From a virus, in IMG/VR virus record IMGVR_UViG_3300018719_000041, positions 1-64,000 of that record: a stretch of 64,000 nucleotides of DNA, one strand, 5' to 3'. Of this stretch, positions 20,635-62,433 are shown in pieces. The stretch's first letter is position 1, and the number at the start of each line of letters is the position of its first letter. The translations under genes and the position numbers were made by a program. The notes under the pieces were generated by a model. That model had not been told where the DNA came from, made no database searches, and saw only the letters and a program-made list of their open reading frames with translations.

Positions 20635-21036
20635 TCAAAGCGTGTCAGGCTCAATCCCAAGCGCCTTTGCGATCCGCTCGACAACGTCCCTGGTCGGGTT
20701 CTTACGTCCCGTTTCGATATCGCTGAGATAGCCCTGCGTGATGCCTGCGTCGTCAGCAAGCTCAACCTGGCTGCGTCCGAAGGAACGCCGGACAGCTCGG
20801 AGACGCGCCCCAGTTGGAAGGTGCTCTTCGGGCTTAGGTGGGCGGCCATCAGGTCCGGCGCGCACAAGCCCTTCCTCTCCGGATGCGATGCGCTGGCGGC
20901 CTTCAGCAATCAGGCGCTCGGTCATGCGATCCTCGGCCTCCTCGTCGCCCAGGCGGGCAAGCATGGCGTCATAGTCTCGGCGGGGGAGAACGACGAGTTC
21001 CTCGCCGCTATCGGTCTTGATGATCTGCGGGTTCAT
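20635..21036 (-). CDS. Antitoxin with Phd-like N-terminus and XRE HTH
   Basis: A 133-residue protein. The N-terminal part (ELVVLPRRDYDAMLARL) has the sequence style of Phd/YefM-type antitoxins, and the C-terminal half is an XRE helix-turn-helix (RAVRRSFGRSQVELADDAGITQGYLSDIETG, about 82-112). The RelE/ParE-like gene lies 12 bases upstream, giving the toxin-first order of HigBA modules. The HTH probably binds the repeats ahead of the operon and represses it. Confidence 0.85.
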   Translation of the reverse strand: MNPQIIKTDSGEELVVLPRRDYDAMLARLGDEEAEDRMTERLIAEGRQRIASGEEGLVRAGPDGRPPKPEEHLPTGARLRAVRRSFGRSQVELADDAGITQGYLSDIETGRKNPTRDVVERIAKALGIEPDTL

Positions 21037-21048
21037 GATGATCCCCTC

Positions 21049-21294
21049 CTATCGGTAAACCTCTCGGCGGTGCCCCGCCGCAAGGATGGTGATGGTTTCG
21101 GCCGTCTCGTCGAAGACGATGCGGTAGTCGCCGATCCGGATCCGCAGGCCCATGCCCCCCTTCATCTGCTTCACGTCGCCTTCGCCGGTGAGGGCATAGA
21201 CGCGGAGGGCTTCGAGGATGGCTTCCTGGGCCTGCTCAGGCAGGTTCCAGAAGGAGCGGGCTGCGGTGGTGGTGTAGATCAGCGTCTTGTTCAT
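21049..21294 (-). CDS. RelE/ParE-family toxin
   Basis: An 81-residue toxin with the RelE/ParE pattern: YTTTAARSFWNLPEQAQEAILEAL in the helical half, then MGLRIRIGDYRIVFDETAETITILAAGHRREVY, where RIRIGDYRIVF and GHRREVY are the family hallmarks. RelE members cut ribosome-bound mRNA and ParE members poison gyrase; sequence reading cannot tell which applies here. It is first in a two-gene operon with its antitoxin. Confidence 0.88.
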   Translation of the reverse strand: MNKTLIYTTTAARSFWNLPEQAQEAILEALRVYALTGEGDVKQMKGGMGLRIRIGDYRIVFDETAETITILAAGHRREVYR

Positions 21295-21424: not shown

Positions 21425-22186
21425 ATGTCAGACATTCAACTTTCAACTGAAGGGCACCCGGCCTACGAGGCATCTGGACCTTACGAAGTCCCTCCATTCT
21501 GGACGCCCGAGCATGTGGCGCACCGCCTGATCCATGCCTTCGAGGTGTTGCTCGCGGTCGGGGGAGGGGTAGGGCCGCGATCCTGCGGGGCCACATGGCC
21601 CGTAGCGATCCGGGAGTTCGCCGATCTCCTCGAGGATGATCGGGACGCGGCGCGTGACTCGTTTGTAGCTGCGCTGAACCGGCCGACCGCCAGCGAGATC
21701 GATCAGTCGGATGAGGCGCTTGCCTGGCCTCTTCGATACATGGCCGACGAGCCCATGGCGGCCGACGCCGTGCTGCTCTGGTCATTCTGCAAGGCAGGAG
21801 GCTTCTCGATCACGGCGGCCCTGCGCGCTAGGACGGAGCGGGCAAAGCGCATGGCGGCCCGGATGCAGGAAGAGGAGAACCAGCGCATCCAGCGCGAGCG
21901 GAAGCTCGCTATCGTGGAGGCCGGAAGGTGGCGAGATGAAAAGGCGAAGGAGATGGGCCTTGCATCGATGCCGGAGCCTGAAAGGCATGAACGCTGGCAG
22001 GAGCTGACAGAAGGCATGCGGTCCCGCATCGCCGCCGATCATGAAAGGCTCAAGCCCGTCGTTTTTCTGCCCTGGCAGGCGGTGCCTGAGAAGATTCTGT
22101 CCCGAACGTCGCTGGACAGGTACTTGCCGGCAGGGCTGGCCTTCCTTGCGGAACAGCTGCACGATGCCCGGGTTCCAGTCCGTTGA
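21425..22186 (+). CDS. Hypothetical prophage protein
   Basis: A 253-residue protein with a strong ribosome site (AGGAGG six bases upstream). It has helical and Arg/Glu-rich segments (AARMQEEENQRIQRERKLAIVE, about 140-160) flanked by more hydrophobic ones. It starts a plus-strand group after the toxin-antitoxin operon. I do not recognise a family. Confidence 0.7.
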   Translation: MSDIQLSTEGHPAYEASGPYEVPPFWTPEHVAHRLIHAFEVLLAVGGGVGPRSCGATWPVAIREFADLLEDDRDAARDSFVAALNRPTASEIDQSDEALAWPLRYMADEPMAADAVLLWSFCKAGGFSITAALRARTERAKRMAARMQEEENQRIQRERKLAIVEAGRWRDEKAKEMGLASMPEPERHERWQELTEGMRSRIAADHERLKPVVFLPWQAVPEKILSRTSLDRYLPAGLAFLAEQLHDARVPVR

Positions 22187-22298: not shown

Positions 22299-23354
22299 AT
22301 GACGACCATACACGAGCTATTATCCTCTCCGATGCCTGCCAGAGATACTGACGTGGCTTCAGTTGCCACCTACAAGTACAATGTTCGGGATTACGGGCCT
22401 GAGCATCTGGCTCTTTTGGGCCTTAGTTGCCTGAAAGGGGTTGGCTTCAGGACGCTTCAAGCGATCGCGGACGCGGGGGTTCCCTTTTCCGACGTCCTGT
22501 CCACTGACGAGACGGATGACGCTGTTACCATACTGAAGAGCTTCGGGGCTCGTATCGAAGGAAATATCACAGATTGGCCGTCGGTTAGAGCAAGGGCGAC
22601 CGAGCGGGCAGAGAAGTACATTGAGGATTTCAAGCAAAACGGTATCTCCCTTATTTTGCGGGACTCTCCGGACTACCCAGAACAACTGCTCGATTTAGCC
22701 TCTGCTCCACATTGGTTGTTTGTTCAGGGTGATCCAGATGTTCTCCATCGTGCATCGATCGCCGTAGTGGGTACCCGAAAGCCAACCGAGGATGGACTGT
22801 TCCTGGGCAAGTATGTGGGAGCATGCCTACGCGAGTGGGGAGCGCCCACAGTAAGCGGGCTGGCTCTTGGGATTGATCAGCAGGCTCATGAGTTGTCGCT
22901 TCGCGCAGGAGTGCCCACGATCGCCTTTTTGGGAACTGGAATTTTCTCCGAGTACCCAAAGGGAACAGCAGGACTCCGAGAGAGGATTCTGGCAGCAGGT
23001 GGAGCAATCGTTACGGAATACCTTCCCCGAGAGACTTACTCGGCAGATAATTTCGTTAAACGAAACCGTCTTCAAGCGGCATTGAGCCGAATCCTCATCC
23101 CAGTCGAGTGGAACTTTAAGAGCGGCACCGCGCACACCGTGCGATTTGCAGCGTCCTTAAAGAGGCCGATAGTTTGTTTACGCATGCCGGATTGGAGCGA
23201 CGAGCGCCTATCGACTGACATGCTGACCAAGTTTGAGACTTGCAGTGTATTCACCATTCCCGGTGAAGAGACCGCTTTACGTGACCACATTAAGCGGAAG
23301 CTGGCAGTCCCAAGGCCGCACCCTAATCCTCAATTCTCTCTGTTCGACGAATGA
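22299..23354 (+). CDS. DprA/SMF-like DNA-processing protein
   Basis: A 351-residue DprA-family protein. An N-terminal helix-hairpin-helix-like part (LALLGLSCLKGVGFRTLQAIADAG, about 38-60) precedes the Rossmann-like SMF domain: SIAVVGTRKPTEDG, VSGLALGIDQQAHELSL, VPTIAFLGTG, EYPKGTAGLRERI, FVKRNRLQAALSRILI and KSGTAHTVRFA. DprA loads RecA on single-stranded DNA in transformation. This copy is prophage cargo, with lower G+C than its neighbours, and is followed four bases later by the HAD-PRTase gene, so the two form a module. Confidence 0.9.
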   Translation: MTTIHELLSSPMPARDTDVASVATYKYNVRDYGPEHLALLGLSCLKGVGFRTLQAIADAGVPFSDVLSTDETDDAVTILKSFGARIEGNITDWPSVRARATERAEKYIEDFKQNGISLILRDSPDYPEQLLDLASAPHWLFVQGDPDVLHRASIAVVGTRKPTEDGLFLGKYVGACLREWGAPTVSGLALGIDQQAHELSLRAGVPTIAFLGTGIFSEYPKGTAGLRERILAAGGAIVTEYLPRETYSADNFVKRNRLQAALSRILIPVEWNFKSGTAHTVRFAASLKRPIVCLRMPDWSDERLSTDMLTKFETCSVFTIPGEETALRDHIKRKLAVPRPHPNPQFSLFDE

Positions 23355-23358
23355 AAAA

Positions 23359-24603
23359 ATGGCTGGTCTGAAAGGCGTAATCTTCTCTCTTCGCGATGTC
23401 TTGGCCAAACACGGGCCAATCGACAATGCTCTCTTCAACGAGACGCTCAAGTTGCTGCGCTATTTGCAGTCCAAAGGTATCACACCTGTCTTTGCGACTA
23501 ACCATGCTTGGGATCTTACCGTAAACGGCAAGGAAATGAGCTTCGAGGGCTACCTTGCGCAGAAGATTGGCCCAGTAAAATTCTACGTCGCACAACGGGG
23601 CGACATGGATTGGAAGCCAAAGGCAGGGGCTGTCGGTCGGATTCTGGCGGACCAAGGATGGGATAAGCGGGAGGTCATATATGTCGGCAACAGCCGAGAT
23701 GACATGATCACTGCCCGAAACGGCAAAGTGCTTTTCCTGAATGCACTCTGGCATGGCGAAACAAACCCGTATGGCTTTCAATTCGATTCGCCGAAGGACA
23801 TAGCGCGATTCATTGATTGTATTTGTCTCGGGCTAGATGAGTGGTTCTGGAAGATCGAAGACGGAAACCTTCGCGTCTATGCTCTTGCTCCATTCACGAC
23901 AATGTCTCCCGCAATGTCAGCTGCCCATGCTTACTCCGCAGGTGCAAGGGCTACAGCCAAGGACGGCGCCGACGATGCGGGGTTCTGGGGAAGGCTTCTG
24001 GCCGCGCGAACTTACTTCTCCGGACTCGTCGACGAGATCGATTTTGTTACTGCCTATCCAGGGCACAGTCCGACATCGAAGCAGAGCGTCGTTGCCGATG
24101 CGCTCGGTATCCTGGCAGAGTCTTTGCATAAGAAATTTCTGCCGGACCTCATCATTCGCCACACAAAGGCACAACAGTCTCACAAGGCACGAGGTGCCGG
24201 TGGCTCAGTCGGATTGGTCAATCAGCTCTCAACGATTCACCTGAATGAGCATCCGCGAAAGGGTCTCCAGGCTGACCCATATAAGAACAATCCAATGGGA
24301 AGAGGCAAAACAGTTCTTGTGGTGGATGATTTCTGTACTGAAGGGAACTCATTCGAGGCTGCACGGGCATTCATTGAGGCGACTGGTGCTCGCGCAATAG
24401 CCCTGAGTTGGCTTAAAACAATCAGCAAGGACTACAGGGAGATCGACGGTCGAATTCCGATCGGTAATCCGTATGTTCCACTCAAAATTACTCAAGAGCC
24501 TCCAACCAAAGGCCATTGGTACAGCAGTGCTATCGTTGACCGGTCGGTAATGACTGACTTGGCCGAGGTCTACTCACGTTATTACAACTGGGACTGGCCA
24601 TAG
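23359..24603 (+). CDS. HAD-like plus phosphoribosyltransferase fusion protein
   Basis: A 414-residue two-domain protein. Residues 1-160 follow the HAD fold: motif I region GVIFSLRDVL (6-15), motif II VFATNHAWD, motif III lysine in MDWKPKAGAVG and motif IV YVGNSRDDMITA. The nucleophilic aspartate of motif I is serine (S10) and the second aspartate is arginine (R12), so phosphatase activity is probably lost. The C-terminal part carries the PRPP-binding loop TVLVVDDFCTEGNS (about 318-331) of type I phosphoribosyltransferases. With DprA it resembles the DprA-ComF pairing of competence, here likely used in phage conflict. Confidence 0.85.
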   Translation: MAGLKGVIFSLRDVLAKHGPIDNALFNETLKLLRYLQSKGITPVFATNHAWDLTVNGKEMSFEGYLAQKIGPVKFYVAQRGDMDWKPKAGAVGRILADQGWDKREVIYVGNSRDDMITARNGKVLFLNALWHGETNPYGFQFDSPKDIARFIDCICLGLDEWFWKIEDGNLRVYALAPFTTMSPAMSAAHAYSAGARATAKDGADDAGFWGRLLAARTYFSGLVDEIDFVTAYPGHSPTSKQSVVADALGILAESLHKKFLPDLIIRHTKAQQSHKARGAGGSVGLVNQLSTIHLNEHPRKGLQADPYKNNPMGRGKTVLVVDDFCTEGNSFEAARAFIEATGARAIALSWLKTISKDYREIDGRIPIGNPYVPLKITQEPPTKGHWYSSAIVDRSVMTDLAEVYSRYYNWDWP

Positions 24604-24666: not shown

Positions 24667-25116
24667 GTGACAAACGACATGCTGACCCGCTTCACTGATG
24701 CAGCGACAGCGCTGGCGCAGCAAGCTCGGGAGCTCTCTGAGGCGAATGCTCGTGAAATGGCCTCCATCAAAGAAGAGAATGAACGTTTACAGTCCGAGAT
24801 CGAGCAAGTCCGAAAGCAACAAGCTGCTGCCGTGCAGGCCGCAGTCACCAGGATCGGGCGCAACCCGGACATGAGCCGGGCAATGGAGGAGGCTTTCCAG
24901 GCCGGGCGCTCGGCAGGATTGGCAGAAGCCGCCGACATGGCTGAAACCTACGTATTTGAATGTATCGATGGTGAGCCTATTAAACTCGGCTTTGACCGTG
25001 GCATGGCTATCGTAGTCCAGCATCTGCTCGCGGAGCATATGAGGGCTCGAGCTGAGGGGCAGGAAGAACCCGTGCATGTTCCCTTCGATCCACGATCCCC
25101 TCGGGGGAGAAGGTGA
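24667..25116 (+). CDS. Coiled-coil protein downstream of the DprA module
   Basis: A 149-residue protein with a long coiled coil (about 15-60: ARELSEANAREMASIKEENER then SEIEQVRKQQAAAVQAAV) and a C-terminal helical region. The GTG start at 24667 is preferred because GGGGG lies five to six bases upstream; a TTG start seven codons earlier is possible. It follows the HAD-PRTase gene by 63 bases and could be a third component, or a separate prophage gene. Confidence 0.65.
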   Translation: MTNDMLTRFTDAATALAQQARELSEANAREMASIKEENERLQSEIEQVRKQQAAAVQAAVTRIGRNPDMSRAMEEAFQAGRSAGLAEAADMAETYVFECIDGEPIKLGFDRGMAIVVQHLLAEHMRARAEGQEEPVHVPFDPRSPRGRR

Positions 25117-25647: not shown

Positions 25648-26160
25648 ATGCAAAATCCGTTAACACTGGCCGTCGAGGACTGGCCAATCGATAAGATCCG
25701 CCCCTATGAGGGCAACCCTCGTGTCATCCCGCAGATCGCAATCGAGAAGGTAGCCGCCTCAATCAGGGAGTTCGGCTGGCGGCAACCGATCGTCGTAGAC
25801 GAGGATGGCGTGATCCTTGTCGGGCACACCCGGCTCAGGGCGGCCCGGCAGCTCGGACACTCAACCGTCCCGGTGCACGTGGCGCACGGGCTCACCAAGG
25901 ACCAAGCTCGCGCTTACCGGCTCGCTGACAACCGGGTTGGGGAAGAGACCGAATGGGATCTCGAAGCTCTGAAGCTGGAGCTTCAAGATTTGGGGAGCCA
26001 CCGCGCCGATCTCGTGCTCACGGGCTTCGATGCCGAATATCTGACCGAACTGCTCGACCCTCCCGGTCCAGAGGCACCGACGGACTTCAAGGCGTTCGAT
26101 GAAACCATCGAGACGAACTGCGAGTGCCCAAAGTGCGGCTACAAATGGAGCCGCACCTGA
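25648..26160 (+). CDS. ParB-domain protein coupled to a DNA methyltransferase
   Basis: A 170-residue protein with a ParB/Srx nuclease-like domain: PIDKIRPYEGNPRVI, VAASIREFGWRQPIVVDEDGVILVGHTRLRAARQLG (about 35-72) and KDQARAYRLADNRVGE. The C-terminus has CECPKCGYKW, a small zinc knuckle. Its stop overlaps the start of the cytosine methyltransferase (TGATG). ParB-domain proteins of this kind usually accompany phage DNA methyltransferases and are thought to assist DNA binding or modification. Confidence 0.88.
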   Translation: MQNPLTLAVEDWPIDKIRPYEGNPRVIPQIAIEKVAASIREFGWRQPIVVDEDGVILVGHTRLRAARQLGHSTVPVHVAHGLTKDQARAYRLADNRVGEETEWDLEALKLELQDLGSHRADLVLTGFDAEYLTELLDPPGPEAPTDFKAFDETIETNCECPKCGYKWSRT

Positions 26161-27320
26161 TGGCGCTCCGGATCAAGAAGTTCGGCTCGAAAGAGCATGT
26201 CGAGCATAGCATCGACGCACCCAGCCCAGCCATTTTGGCTGGAGGTATCAATGGCGTCCGCCACGGCCAATATCAGCTCACCGCAGTGGACCCTCCTGGT
26301 GATAGCCTACCGCCCGGGATCTCGATCGAGGAGGGTAAGCCGCCATACCGTGTCCCGAGCATGGAGGAGATTAGGGCGTTGCTTTGGAACGGCCTCAAGG
26401 TCGCCTCCACCTTCGCCGGCTGCGGGGGATCCTCCACCGGGTACCGCATGGCCGGTTACCGGGTGGTTTGGGCGAATGAGTTCGTGCCGATCGCGCAGGA
26501 GAGCTATCGGGCCAATATGGCACCGTACACTATCCTCGATGGGCGAGACGTGCGCCAGGTACAGGCCCGAGAGATCCTTGAAGCGACCGGCATGAAGGAA
26601 GGCGAGCTCGACATCTTCGATGGCTCACCGCCATGTCAGGCGTTCTCGAGCGCAGGAGCCCGAGAGCGCGGTTGGGGCAAGGACAAGGTGTACGAGCACG
26701 GCGCCAAGCAGCGGAACGAGGAGTTGTTCTTCGACTATATCCGCCTGCTGGACGGTCTGAAGCCGCGCGCCTTCGTGGCAGAGAACGTGTCCGGACTCGT
26801 GAGGGGAACCGCGAAGGGCTACTTCCTCGATATCCTCGCGGCCCTCAAACGGTGCGGCTATCGGGTCGAGGCCCGCGAGCTGGACGCTCAATGGCTCGGT
26901 GTCCCACAGTCCCGACATCGCATCATATTCATCGGTGTTCGTGAAGACCTGAACTTGGCGCCGGTCTTTCCAAAGCCGCTCAGGTATCGGTATTCGACTC
27001 GTGAGGCCTTGCCCTGGATCGGGCGTGCCGTCCACGATACGTCCGGTCAGTTCTCCCTTGGAGAGTTTACCGATAAGCCGAGCCCAGCCATCCTCACAGG
27101 GGCATCTCACTATCATGTGCTGGATGGAGCCGGAGAAGGGCAACGGCGCCGAAGGTTCGAAATTTGCGAGGCTCGCCGTCTGTGCGGCTTTCCCGACGAT
27201 TTCATCCTGAAGGGGTCGTACTCACAGCAGTGGGAAAGACTCGGGAATTCCGTGCCTCCCGTGATGATGTCCCGGATCGCGGCAACACTGCGCGACCAGG
27301 TGCTGCTCCAGTCCAAATGA
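26160..27320 (+). CDS. C5-cytosine DNA methyltransferase
   Basis: A 386-residue Dcm-type enzyme. Motif I is STFAGCGGSSTGY (about 83-95), motif IV SPPCQAFS (about 156-163), motif VI AENVSG, motif VIII QSRHR, motif IX KPSPAIL (about 306) and motif X GNSVPP. The N-terminal 70 residues add DAPSPAILAGG, which copies the motif IX wording. It would methylate phage and lysogen DNA and so blunt host restriction. The start at 26160 is coupled to the ParB-domain gene; an earlier in-frame ATG is less likely. Confidence 0.93.
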   Translation: MALRIKKFGSKEHVEHSIDAPSPAILAGGINGVRHGQYQLTAVDPPGDSLPPGISIEEGKPPYRVPSMEEIRALLWNGLKVASTFAGCGGSSTGYRMAGYRVVWANEFVPIAQESYRANMAPYTILDGRDVRQVQAREILEATGMKEGELDIFDGSPPCQAFSSAGARERGWGKDKVYEHGAKQRNEELFFDYIRLLDGLKPRAFVAENVSGLVRGTAKGYFLDILAALKRCGYRVEARELDAQWLGVPQSRHRIIFIGVREDLNLAPVFPKPLRYRYSTREALPWIGRAVHDTSGQFSLGEFTDKPSPAILTGASHYHVLDGAGEGQRRRRFEICEARRLCGFPDDFILKGSYSQQWERLGNSVPPVMMSRIAATLRDQVLLQSK

Positions 27321-58885: not shown

Positions 58886-59216
58886 GTTTTTAGAGAAAAT
58901 TTTTTGCTGCGAGAAGTTGATCGTCCATCAGCTTTCTACTTGTGAGCGGTGAATTTGAGGAAAGGTAGCACATCAGAAAGACCATCTACTTAGAACTGAC
59001 TTTCCTCCTAGCGCTGTCGCAGTTTTCTGTATCTAGCCACCATGGTAACTTTCTGAATAGAAATAACGTACCGGTCAGGGCGGATCCTCAACTCACCCGT
59101 AGAGCCTGCAAGCACAATGAATACTGCAGGTTCAGGGTACGTGAGAGCCCTCTCTGGACTGGGCAATCGGCTCGTTGATTTATCGTTTTAATCTGTTTCC
59201 ATCAGCGGATCATGCC
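58886..59216. other. A+T-richer intergenic region upstream of luxR
   Basis: About 330 bases without a gene and clearly poorer in G+C than the phage. CCTGCA (59105-59110) and TGCAGG (59125-59130) form a spaced dyad that could bind a LuxR-type regulator. An attachment site could lie here, but the other copy is outside the window. The TTG at 59175 is a possible earlier luxR start. Confidence 0.5.
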
Positions 59217-59957
59217 ATGGTTTGCAGTGCACATATTGACGTGAATGCTGTGTTGGAGCCCATCGAGGTGCTCAACCATTTAAACGATCCGGAAGACATC
59301 TTCAGCCATCTCGAAAAACATCTGGCCCGTTATGGGTTTACTTCATTTCTTGTTTCAAGATTGCCTTCGCAGCATCAGCGCCTGGAGCCTTACATCCTGC
59401 TCAACGGCTGGTCCCTGGACTGGTATTATCAGTACACGAAGGTGAACCACTACGAGAGCGACCCGGTCGCGCGGCACTGCTTTACGACACCCAATCCGTT
59501 CACCTGGGATGAGCTGCCGTCCGATCTTCTGGAGAGTAGGGAGGCCCAGCTCGTGATGGACGAGGCTGTCGAGTTCGGTCTCGGCCAAGGCTTCACGGTT
59601 CCTATCCATGGATTCTTCAATTCCTTGGCTTTGGTGACGATGGCCGGGCCTTGGATCGAAATGTCGCCGTGCGAGCGGCATCTGGTTCACCTGATGTCGA
59701 TCTTTGCCCACAGCGCTGCGGAGCGGACCGTACGGAAGATTGATCTTCCCAAAACCATAGGGCTGTTGTCTGAGCGCGAGCGGGACATCCTGAGATGGCT
59801 TACAGAAGGATTGACGCTCATCGAGGCCAAGGAGCGCCTGGGCATCACCGAGAACACCGTGAACGAATACATGCGCCGGATCCGACGCAAGCTCGGGGCC
59901 AGGACGGCTGTTCAGGCTGTGGTCGAGGCTCTCCTTCGTCGTGAGATCCAACTATGA
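59217..59957 (+). CDS. LuxR-family autoinducer-binding regulator 1
   Basis: A 246-residue LuxR-type regulator. The autoinducer domain has NGWSLDWYYQYTKVNHYESDPVARHC with the conserved W, Y and DP, TWDEL and GLGQGFTVPIHG. The C-terminal HTH is LSERERDILRWLTEGLTLIEAKERLGITENTVNEYMRRIRRKLG. ATG 59217 is chosen; a TTG at 59175 would add 14 residues. It overlaps the next gene by ATGA. Its partner synthase is encoded 1.9 kb downstream. Confidence 0.9.
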   Translation: MVCSAHIDVNAVLEPIEVLNHLNDPEDIFSHLEKHLARYGFTSFLVSRLPSQHQRLEPYILLNGWSLDWYYQYTKVNHYESDPVARHCFTTPNPFTWDELPSDLLESREAQLVMDEAVEFGLGQGFTVPIHGFFNSLALVTMAGPWIEMSPCERHLVHLMSIFAHSAAERTVRKIDLPKTIGLLSERERDILRWLTEGLTLIEAKERLGITENTVNEYMRRIRRKLGARTAVQAVVEALLRREIQL

Positions 59958-60994: not shown

Positions 60995-61726
60995 ATGTCG
61001 CGCAAAGCCTTTGAAAGAACGCTGGAGTTCATTCGCGCGCTCGACGAGGCCAAGAGCCCGGCCGAGATCTGTGAAAGGCTTCTGGCTTCAATCAGGCAGT
61101 TCGGGGCGGAGTATGTTCTCGCGGGCACCATTCCGGGCCCAGGTACGAGCCGGCAGCAGCAGATGTCGAGTGTCGTCCTCGATCATTGGCCGAAGGAGTG
61201 GAGCCAGCGCTACTTTTCCCACGGTTACATCTTTCGGGATCCGGCGATCAAAGCGGTCAGGATGAGTCCGTCCTCGTTCCTGTGGAGTGAGCTGGAGCCT
61301 GTCTGTCGAGGCGACACCCAGGCGCGGCGCATCATGGACGAGGCCAGGGATTTCCGGCTCAAGCAGGGGGTCACGATCCCTTTGACGATGCTCGACGGCG
61401 ACGTGGCGGGCTTTTCGATTGCCGGGGAGCGCCTTGATCTGTCTCCGGAGGACCGCGGCGTTCTCACCCTCCTGGCCACTTACGCCCTCGGCCGCTCGAT
61501 TTTCCTTCGAGAGGCAGGCGATCGGACAGAGATCAAGCTGACGCCTCGGGAAAAAGAGACGCTCCAGTGGGCGGCGGAAGGCAAGACCGAGTCTGAGATC
61601 GGTGAACGGATGGGCATCTCGGAGCATGGGGTCGACAAGCATATGCGCTCTGCTCGCGAGAAGCTCGGGACGAGAACCCGAACTCACGCTGTCGCGGAAG
61701 CATTGCGCCTGCACCTCATCAAATGA
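60995..61726 (+). CDS. LuxR-family autoinducer-binding regulator 2
   Basis: A 243-residue LuxR-type protein: DHWPKEWSQRYFSHGYIFRDPAIKAVR with W, Y and DP positions, FLWSEL, KQGVTIPLTM, and HTH LTPREKETLQWAAEGKTESEIGERMGISEHGVDKHMRSAREKLG. It lies directly upstream of luxI with the 18-bp palindrome between them, so it is the likely cognate receptor. GGGGGCGGGC precedes the ATG. Confidence 0.92.
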   Translation: MSRKAFERTLEFIRALDEAKSPAEICERLLASIRQFGAEYVLAGTIPGPGTSRQQQMSSVVLDHWPKEWSQRYFSHGYIFRDPAIKAVRMSPSSFLWSELEPVCRGDTQARRIMDEARDFRLKQGVTIPLTMLDGDVAGFSIAGERLDLSPEDRGVLTLLATYALGRSIFLREAGDRTEIKLTPREKETLQWAAEGKTESEIGERMGISEHGVDKHMRSAREKLGTRTRTHAVAEALRLHLIK

Positions 61727-61728
61727 AG

Positions 61729-61746
61729 AGTACGGGATCGCGTACT
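61729..61746. promoter_or_regulatory. Lux-box-like 18-bp palindrome upstream of luxI
   Basis: AGTACGGGATCGCGTACT is symmetric except for one base pair position on each side of the central GATC, and starts two bases after the luxR 2 stop, 55 bases before luxI. Length, symmetry and place fit a LuxR binding site. Confidence 0.65.
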
Positions 61747-61800
61747 TATGCCCCTTTGAGAGGCTGGCCAAATGTCAGCATCCAACCAGTGAGGGGCACC

Positions 61801-62433
61801 ATGATCCATATCGTTACGCCAGAAAATGAATACCTGTTCCGCAATGAGATGGAACAGGCCTACCGGCTGCGGCACCGCGTTTTCGTCGAGGAGAAGAAGT
61901 GGAGGGATCTCGCGAAGCCGGACGGGCGGGAGATCGATCAGTTCGACAATGAATATGCCGTCCACATGCTCTACATCGAGGAAGGCAGGGTGCTGGGCTA
62001 TCAGCGCATGTTGCCGTCCACGCGTCCGCATCTCTTGTCGGATGTACTGCCTCAGCTTTGTGAGGATGAGCGCCCGATCGGCGCTCACATTTGGGAGTGG
62101 ACCCGGTATTGCGTCGAGCCGGCGCATCGCGAGCGCGGACGCACGCTAAGCCCGGTGGCGAATGCTCTTCTCTCCGGTATCGTCGAGTGGGGTCTCGAGA
62201 ACGGGGTCAATTCGATCATCATTCAAATGAACCCGTTGTGGTTGCTGCGCCTGGTGCAGCTTCACTTCCGCACGATGCCTCTCGGGCTGCCCCAGAGGAT
62301 CGGAGATGAAGACGTCGTCGCAGTCACGGCTTCCTTCGATCGTCGGACACTCACACGGCTTCAGGAGATGCGCGGCGACACGCGGCGTGTTCTTGCGGAG
62401 CCGTGGAGGGCGATCCAGCGCTTGGCCGGATAG
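61801..62433 (+). CDS. LuxI-family acyl-homoserine-lactone synthase
   Basis: A 210-residue synthase. All key family residues are visible: RLRHRVFVEEKKW (R, F, W), EIDQFDNEYAVH (two Asp), GYQRMLPSTRPHLLSDVLPQLC (R) and IWEWTRYCVEP (E, R). It makes an acyl-homoserine lactone from S-adenosylmethionine and an acyl donor; the acyl chain cannot be predicted. Start ATG 61801 follows the lux-box-like site. Confidence 0.94.
   Translation: MIHIVTPENEYLFRNEMEQAYRLRHRVFVEEKKWRDLAKPDGREIDQFDNEYAVHMLYIEEGRVLGYQRMLPSTRPHLLSDVLPQLCEDERPIGAHIWEWTRYCVEPAHRERGRTLSPVANALLSGIVEWGLENGVNSIIIQMNPLWLLRLVQLHFRTMPLGLPQRIGDEDVVAVTASFDRRTLTRLQEMRGDTRRVLAEPWRAIQRLAG

What the first reader, a model, noticed from the sequence alone, without database searches (positions are those of the whole stretch)
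22299..24603. DprA-like protein paired with a degenerate HAD-phosphoribosyltransferase: candidate conflict system in a prophage
Sequence shows a full SMF/DprA domain followed four bases later by a protein with a HAD domain whose motif I lacks both catalytic aspartates (S10, R12) but keeps motifs II-IV, fused to a PRTase with an intact PRPP loop. In transformation DprA works with the PRTase-fold protein ComF; here both folds sit as low-G+C cargo between replication and packaging genes. Inference: a nucleotide-sensing anti-phage or anti-plasmid module. The coiled-coil gene at 24667 may belong to it. I recall DprA-PRTase neighbours in computational surveys but cannot confirm a described system with this architecture.
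Basis: partly seen in the sequence, partly recalled or inferred. Interest (0 to 1): 0.75.

Follow-up and report, generated by a model that had tools for sequence, protein, structure and literature searches.

The report
ShosTA toxin-antitoxin defence pair in prophage
The two genes are an intact copy of ShosTA, an already described bacterial toxin-antitoxin system that protects against phages, carried here as cargo by a probable prophage of an alphaproteobacterium; the odd 'broken' HAD domain is a normal trait of the family.

Summary
In detail: an intact DprA/SMF gene (22299-23354) is followed four bases later by an intact gene for a degenerate HAD domain fused to a phosphoribosyltransferase (23359-24603), in low-G+C DNA between replication and packaging genes. 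It is not a new conflict system. PADLOC models call the two proteins ShosA (6e-81) and ShosT (2e-79). AlphaFold models match solved ShosA (8zva) and ShosT (8zvb-d) over nearly their full length. A DprA-PRTase pair from a P2-phage hotspot blocks T7 and lambda (Rousset 2022). Missing HAD nucleophile aspartate is the family rule: 68 of 69 full-length ShosT lack it, including the solved one, and a HAD-less ShosT branch exists. The PRPP-loop DDxxTxG residues are conserved in 69/69. ShosA sits beside ShosT in 65 of 66 informative loci across several phyla. The coiled-coil gene at 24667 has no homologue beside any other ShosTA pair and is probably not part of it. Most likely mechanism: ShosT is a PRPP-using toxin that disturbs purine metabolism, held in check by DNA-binding ShosA until infection. 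Verdict: new member of a known system; low interest.

The parts
22299..23354 (+). ShosA antitoxin: DprA/SMF-like Rossmann-fold protein, 351 aa
   Evidence: PADLOC ShosA 6e-81; Pfam PF02481 5e-56; PDB 9vzo/8zva ShosA about 2e-63; AlphaFold model pLDDT 90.6, best PDB match 8zva, TM 0.78/0.88
23359..24603 (+). ShosT toxin: N-terminal degenerate HAD domain plus C-terminal phosphoribosyltransferase, 414 aa
   Evidence: PADLOC ShosT 2.1e-79 over residues 4-414; PDB ShosT 1.3e-73 over 4-414; AlphaFold model pLDDT 91.9, best PDB match 8zvc ShosT with PRPP-Mg, TM 0.86/0.84
23371..23403 (+). degenerate HAD motif I (KGVIFSLRDVL, residues 5-15; S10, R12)
   Evidence: residue 10 is Ser in 63 of 69 ShosT and Asp in only 1 of 69
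24310..24354 (+). PRPP-binding loop TVLVVDDFCTEGNSF (residues 318-332)
   Evidence: D323, D324, T327 and G329 conserved in 69 of 69

Best explanation
The pair is a complete ShosTA toxin-antitoxin / anti-phage system of the HAD-containing type, carried as cargo by a prophage whose host is probably in the Alphaproteobacteria. ShosT is the toxin: its PRTase domain binds PRPP and, when released, disturbs purine nucleotide metabolism and causes DNA damage and cell filamentation, aborting infection. ShosA, a DprA-fold DNA-binding protein from the same operon, counteracts it. Infection upsets this balance. Shown here: sequence, fold and operon membership, the intact PRPP loop, and the family-wide loss of the HAD nucleophile. 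Shown elsewhere for homologues: defence and biochemistry. Inferred: that this copy is active, that the HAD domain is structural or regulatory rather than a classical phosphatase, and that it protects the lysogen against competing phages.
For: PADLOC ShosA/ShosT matches. Near full-length matches to solved ShosA and ShosT, by sequence and by fold. ShosA immediately next to ShosT in 65 of 66 informative loci. The homologue in Peduovirus P24C9 (35.5% identity) lies in a P2-like phage; Rousset 2022 (PMC9122126) tested a DprA-PRTase pair from the P2 hotspot and found protection against T7 and lambda. The review PMC12593503 reports ShosT as a PRTase and pyrophosphatase that alters the purine pool, ShosA as DNA-binding, and T7 Gp0.7 as a trigger. 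A close phage relative (L113, TerL 63%) has only about 340 bases where this window has about 6.7 kb, consistent with a variable cargo site.
Against: No functional test of this copy. Identity to the E. coli homologue is only about 36%, so trigger and target could differ. The primary mechanism paper (Pu et al. 2025) was not in the library and is known here only through a review.
Confidence: 0.95

Rival explanations
1. A new, undescribed nucleotide-sensing conflict system in which the degenerate HAD senses a nucleotide and signals to DprA.
For: Motif I and part of motif IV of the HAD are lost while the fold is kept, which is what a domain turned to ligand sensing would look like.
Against: Both genes match described ShosTA models, solved structures and a tested system. 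The degeneracy is shared by the family. A HAD-less ShosT branch shows that the domain is dispensable in some members.
Confidence: 0.03
2. A competence or recombination function: DprA plus a ComF-like PRTase helping uptake or repair of single-stranded DNA.
For: DprA domain with a fold match to DprA of Rhodopseudomonas, Streptococcus and Helicobacter. A PRTase-fold protein, ComFC, also acts in transformation (PMC9005727, listed, not read).
Against: Below the NCBIfam DprA equivalog cut-off (151 against 191 bits). Best matches are ShosA, not competence DprA. The neighbourhoods are phages, plasmids and islands, not com loci.
Confidence: 0.02
3. A phage-encoded counter-defence or nucleotide-metabolism gene pair that helps this phage's own replication rather than immunity.
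For: It lies beside replication genes of the phage and is co-directional with them.
Against: Low G+C cargo, absent in the closest phage relative. The same pair is on plasmids and chromosomes, and in P2-like phages it is the tested defence cargo.
Confidence: 0.05

Closest known systems
ShosTA (ShosT/ShosA) of E. coli and P2-like phages; PDB 8zva-8zvd, 9vzo, 9w2p, 9w2q; the 'DprA-PRTase' system of Rousset 2022
   Same: Same two proteins, same order, near-zero intergenic gap, same domain architecture (degenerate HAD plus PRTase), same PRPP loop, carried by a temperate phage
   Different: About 35-38% (ShosT) and 39-41% (ShosA) identity; alphaproteobacterial lineage; sits between replication and packaging genes of an unrelated phage
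HAD-less ShosTA (PADLOC PDLC03961/PDLC03962)
   Same: DprA-like antitoxin plus PRTase toxin with a conserved DDxxTxG loop
   Different: ShosT is about 212-219 aa in the copies seen and lacks the HAD domain; often lies next to a HAD-type ShosTA, but not in this window
PsyrTA / RqlHI
   Same: DprA-like antitoxin paired with a PRTase-domain toxin
   Different: The toxin carries a RecQ-like helicase domain in place of the HAD; ShosA here matches PsyrA only at 2e-24

Membership tests
ShosTA | DprA/SMF-fold ShosA antitoxin | tested here: met
   PADLOC 6e-81; 8zva by fold, TM 0.78/0.88
ShosTA | ShosT with C-terminal PRTase and intact PRPP loop | tested here: met
   PADLOC 2e-79 over the full length; DDxxTxG conserved 69/69; 8zvc (PRPP-Mg) TM 0.86/0.84
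ShosTA | N-terminal HAD domain, as in E. coli ShosT | tested here: met
   HAD-fold matches by structure; same nucleophile loss as in the solved E. coli ShosT
ShosTA | Two-gene operon, conserved across genomes | tested here: met
   65 of 66 informative loci have ShosA adjacent; exception L042
ShosTA | ShosT toxic alone, neutralised by ShosA | not testable with these tools
   published for homologues only
ShosTA | Protection against phages | not testable with these tools
   published for a P2-hotspot DprA-PRTase pair against T7 and lambda
Competence DprA | Passes the DprA equivalog model | tested here: not met
   TIGR00732 151.5 bits against cut-off 191.15; PRK10736 127.6 against 495
Catalytic HAD phosphatase | Nucleophile Asp and acid/base Asp in motif I | tested here: not met
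   S10, R12
PsyrTA / RqlHI | Toxin with a helicase domain | tested here: not met
   only HAD and PRTase found in the toxin

The most novel reading that the evidence does not exclude
The family-wide pseudo-HAD of ShosT keeps its fold but has lost its nucleophile because it became a regulatory or ligand-sensing module (for PRPP, a nucleotide or ShosA binding) that gates the PRTase toxin; HAD-type and HAD-less ShosTA sitting side by side would then be two differently gated sensors guarding one cell.
Probability: 0.2. Interest if true: 0.4.

Novelty: new member of a known kind. Interest (0 to 1): 0.15.

Why it matters
It extends a tested toxin-antitoxin defence system to another temperate phage lineage, and it shows that the 'broken' HAD domain is a constant of the family, so its role is a general question about ShosT and not about this locus. 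It is not a new system.

Tried and rejected
Single-sequence scans for relatives of ShosT, the coiled-coil gene and the gene at 21425 found nothing in the contig collections; an alignment query then found 63 ShosT loci. The coiled-coil gene 24667-25116 was rejected as a third component: no family above cut-off and no homologue in any ShosTA locus. Competence role: rejected on models and context. Catalytic HAD phosphatase: rejected on motif I. The primary mechanism paper for ShosTA could not be found in the paper library. No chromosome of the host is held; the record is a 66,036-base virus contig, and no direct repeat long enough to be a clear att site was found between its ends (longest 13 bases).

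Full report
Two intact, co-directional ORFs lie at 22299-23354 (351 aa) and 23359-24603 (414 aa), four bases apart. The first is a DprA/SMF protein (PF02481, 5e-56); the second has weak HAD and phosphoribosyltransferase matches. HAD motif I is VIFSLRDVL, so S10 and R12 stand where the two aspartates should be. Their G+C is 0.52-0.54 in a window of 0.616, with third-position G+C of 0.56 against 0.73-0.78 in most neighbouring genes.

What it is. PADLOC models name the proteins ShosA (6e-81) and ShosT (2e-79), each over nearly the whole protein. Sequence search of the PDB gives solved ShosT (8zvb, 8zvc, 8zvd, 9w2p, 9w2q; 1.3e-73 over residues 4-414) and ShosA (8zva, 9vzo; about 2e-63). AlphaFold models made from alignments of session loci (pLDDT 91.9 and 90.6) have as best PDB matches ShosT with PRPP-Mg (8zvc, TM 0.86/0.84) and ShosA of E. 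coli APEC O1 (8zva, TM 0.78/0.88). Entry 8zvb is titled 'The ShosTA toxin-antitoxin system provides phage defence'.

Is the degenerate HAD special? No. In an alignment of 69 full-length ShosT, position 10 is Ser in 63, Gly in 4, Thr in 1 and Asp in 1. The solved E. coli ShosT has the same Ser (FSIADVV). The PRPP-loop residues D323, D324, T327 and G329 are invariant in all 69. A second, HAD-less ShosT type (about 212-219 aa, PADLOC PDLC03962) keeps the DDxxTxG loop. So the PRTase is the constant part of the toxin, and the HAD is a non-classical module that some members do without.

Is the pair conserved? ShosA lies directly beside ShosT in 65 of 66 loci where the neighbour can be seen. Four further loci are cut at a contig end, and L042 is the exception, with a HAD-less pair in place of its own ShosA. 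Two of the 65, the window itself and L053, were counted by hand because the mechanical ORF of ShosT starts too far upstream. Carriers include P2-like phages, rhizobial and Pseudomonas plasmids, a Piscirickettsia element where the pair again lies between ssb and terminase genes, Streptomyces, Bacteroidota (order reversed), Nostoc and a Chloroflexota genome. The window copy groups with alphaproteobacterial ShosT (Rhodospirillales, Labrys, Sphingopyxis, Ruegeria; 55-60% identity), with moderate support for the exact branch.

Context. The window is part of a 66,036-base virus record with an integrase at the left end, RecT, primase, helicase, TerL, portal, head protease and tail genes. In a phage relative, L113 (TerL 63%, helicase 46%, the gene at 21425 42%), the stretch between the homologues of the gene at 21425 and of the Neck1 gene is about 340 bases, whereas here it is about 6.7 kb and holds ShosTA, the coiled-coil gene, a ParB-like gene and a methyltransferase. 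ParB homologues occur in many related phages, while the coiled-coil gene has no homologue in any fetched locus. This fits a variable cargo site; it rests on one close relative.

Mechanism. Rousset et al. 2022 (PMC9122126) showed that a DprA-PRTase pair from the P2 hotspot protects against T7 and lambda, and cite shosTA, syrTA and rqlHI as toxin-antitoxin systems with DprA antitoxins. The related RqlH toxin needs its PRTase domain for genotoxicity, and RqlI (DprA-like) binds that domain (PMC4670107). A 2025 review (PMC12593503) summarises Pu et al. 2025: ShosT is a PRTase and pyrophosphatase that disturbs purine pools, ShosA binds DNA, and T7 Gp0.7 is a trigger. PMC10732053 lists ShosTA among systems activated by phage single-stranded DNA-binding protein. 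For this copy all of that is inference by homology at about 36% identity.

Verdict. An ordinary, well-supported new member of ShosTA.

Noticed in passing
L003, L004, L005, L014, L015, L016, L017, L023, L026, L027, L042, L054: HAD-type ShosTA often has a second ShosA-like gene within about 3 kb, convergent in rhizobia and co-directional upstream in other alphaproteobacteria. Where checked (L003, L014, L015, L042) the second pair's proteins match the HAD-less ShosTA models. In L042 the HAD-type ShosT has no ShosA of its own and directly follows a HAD-less pair.
   Followed up: partly
60995-62433 (also 59175-59957): A LuxR-type regulator and an acyl-homoserine-lactone synthase (LuxI) in tandem, with a second LuxR-like gene upstream, lie just past the lysis-type genes of the prophage. 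LuxI is up to 71% identical to homologues on rhizobial plasmids. Whether this is phage cargo or host flank is not settled.
   Followed up: partly
20635-21294, - strand: A small HTH gene and a RelE/HigB-like gene form a probable second toxin-antitoxin pair next to the ShosTA cargo. The toxin call is by eye.
   Followed up: no
24667-25116: Coiled-coil ORF (GTG start) of intermediate G+C with no recognisable homologue.
   Followed up: partly
25648-27320: ParB-like gene followed by a C5-type DNA methyltransferase, possibly phage self-protection against restriction.
   Followed up: no
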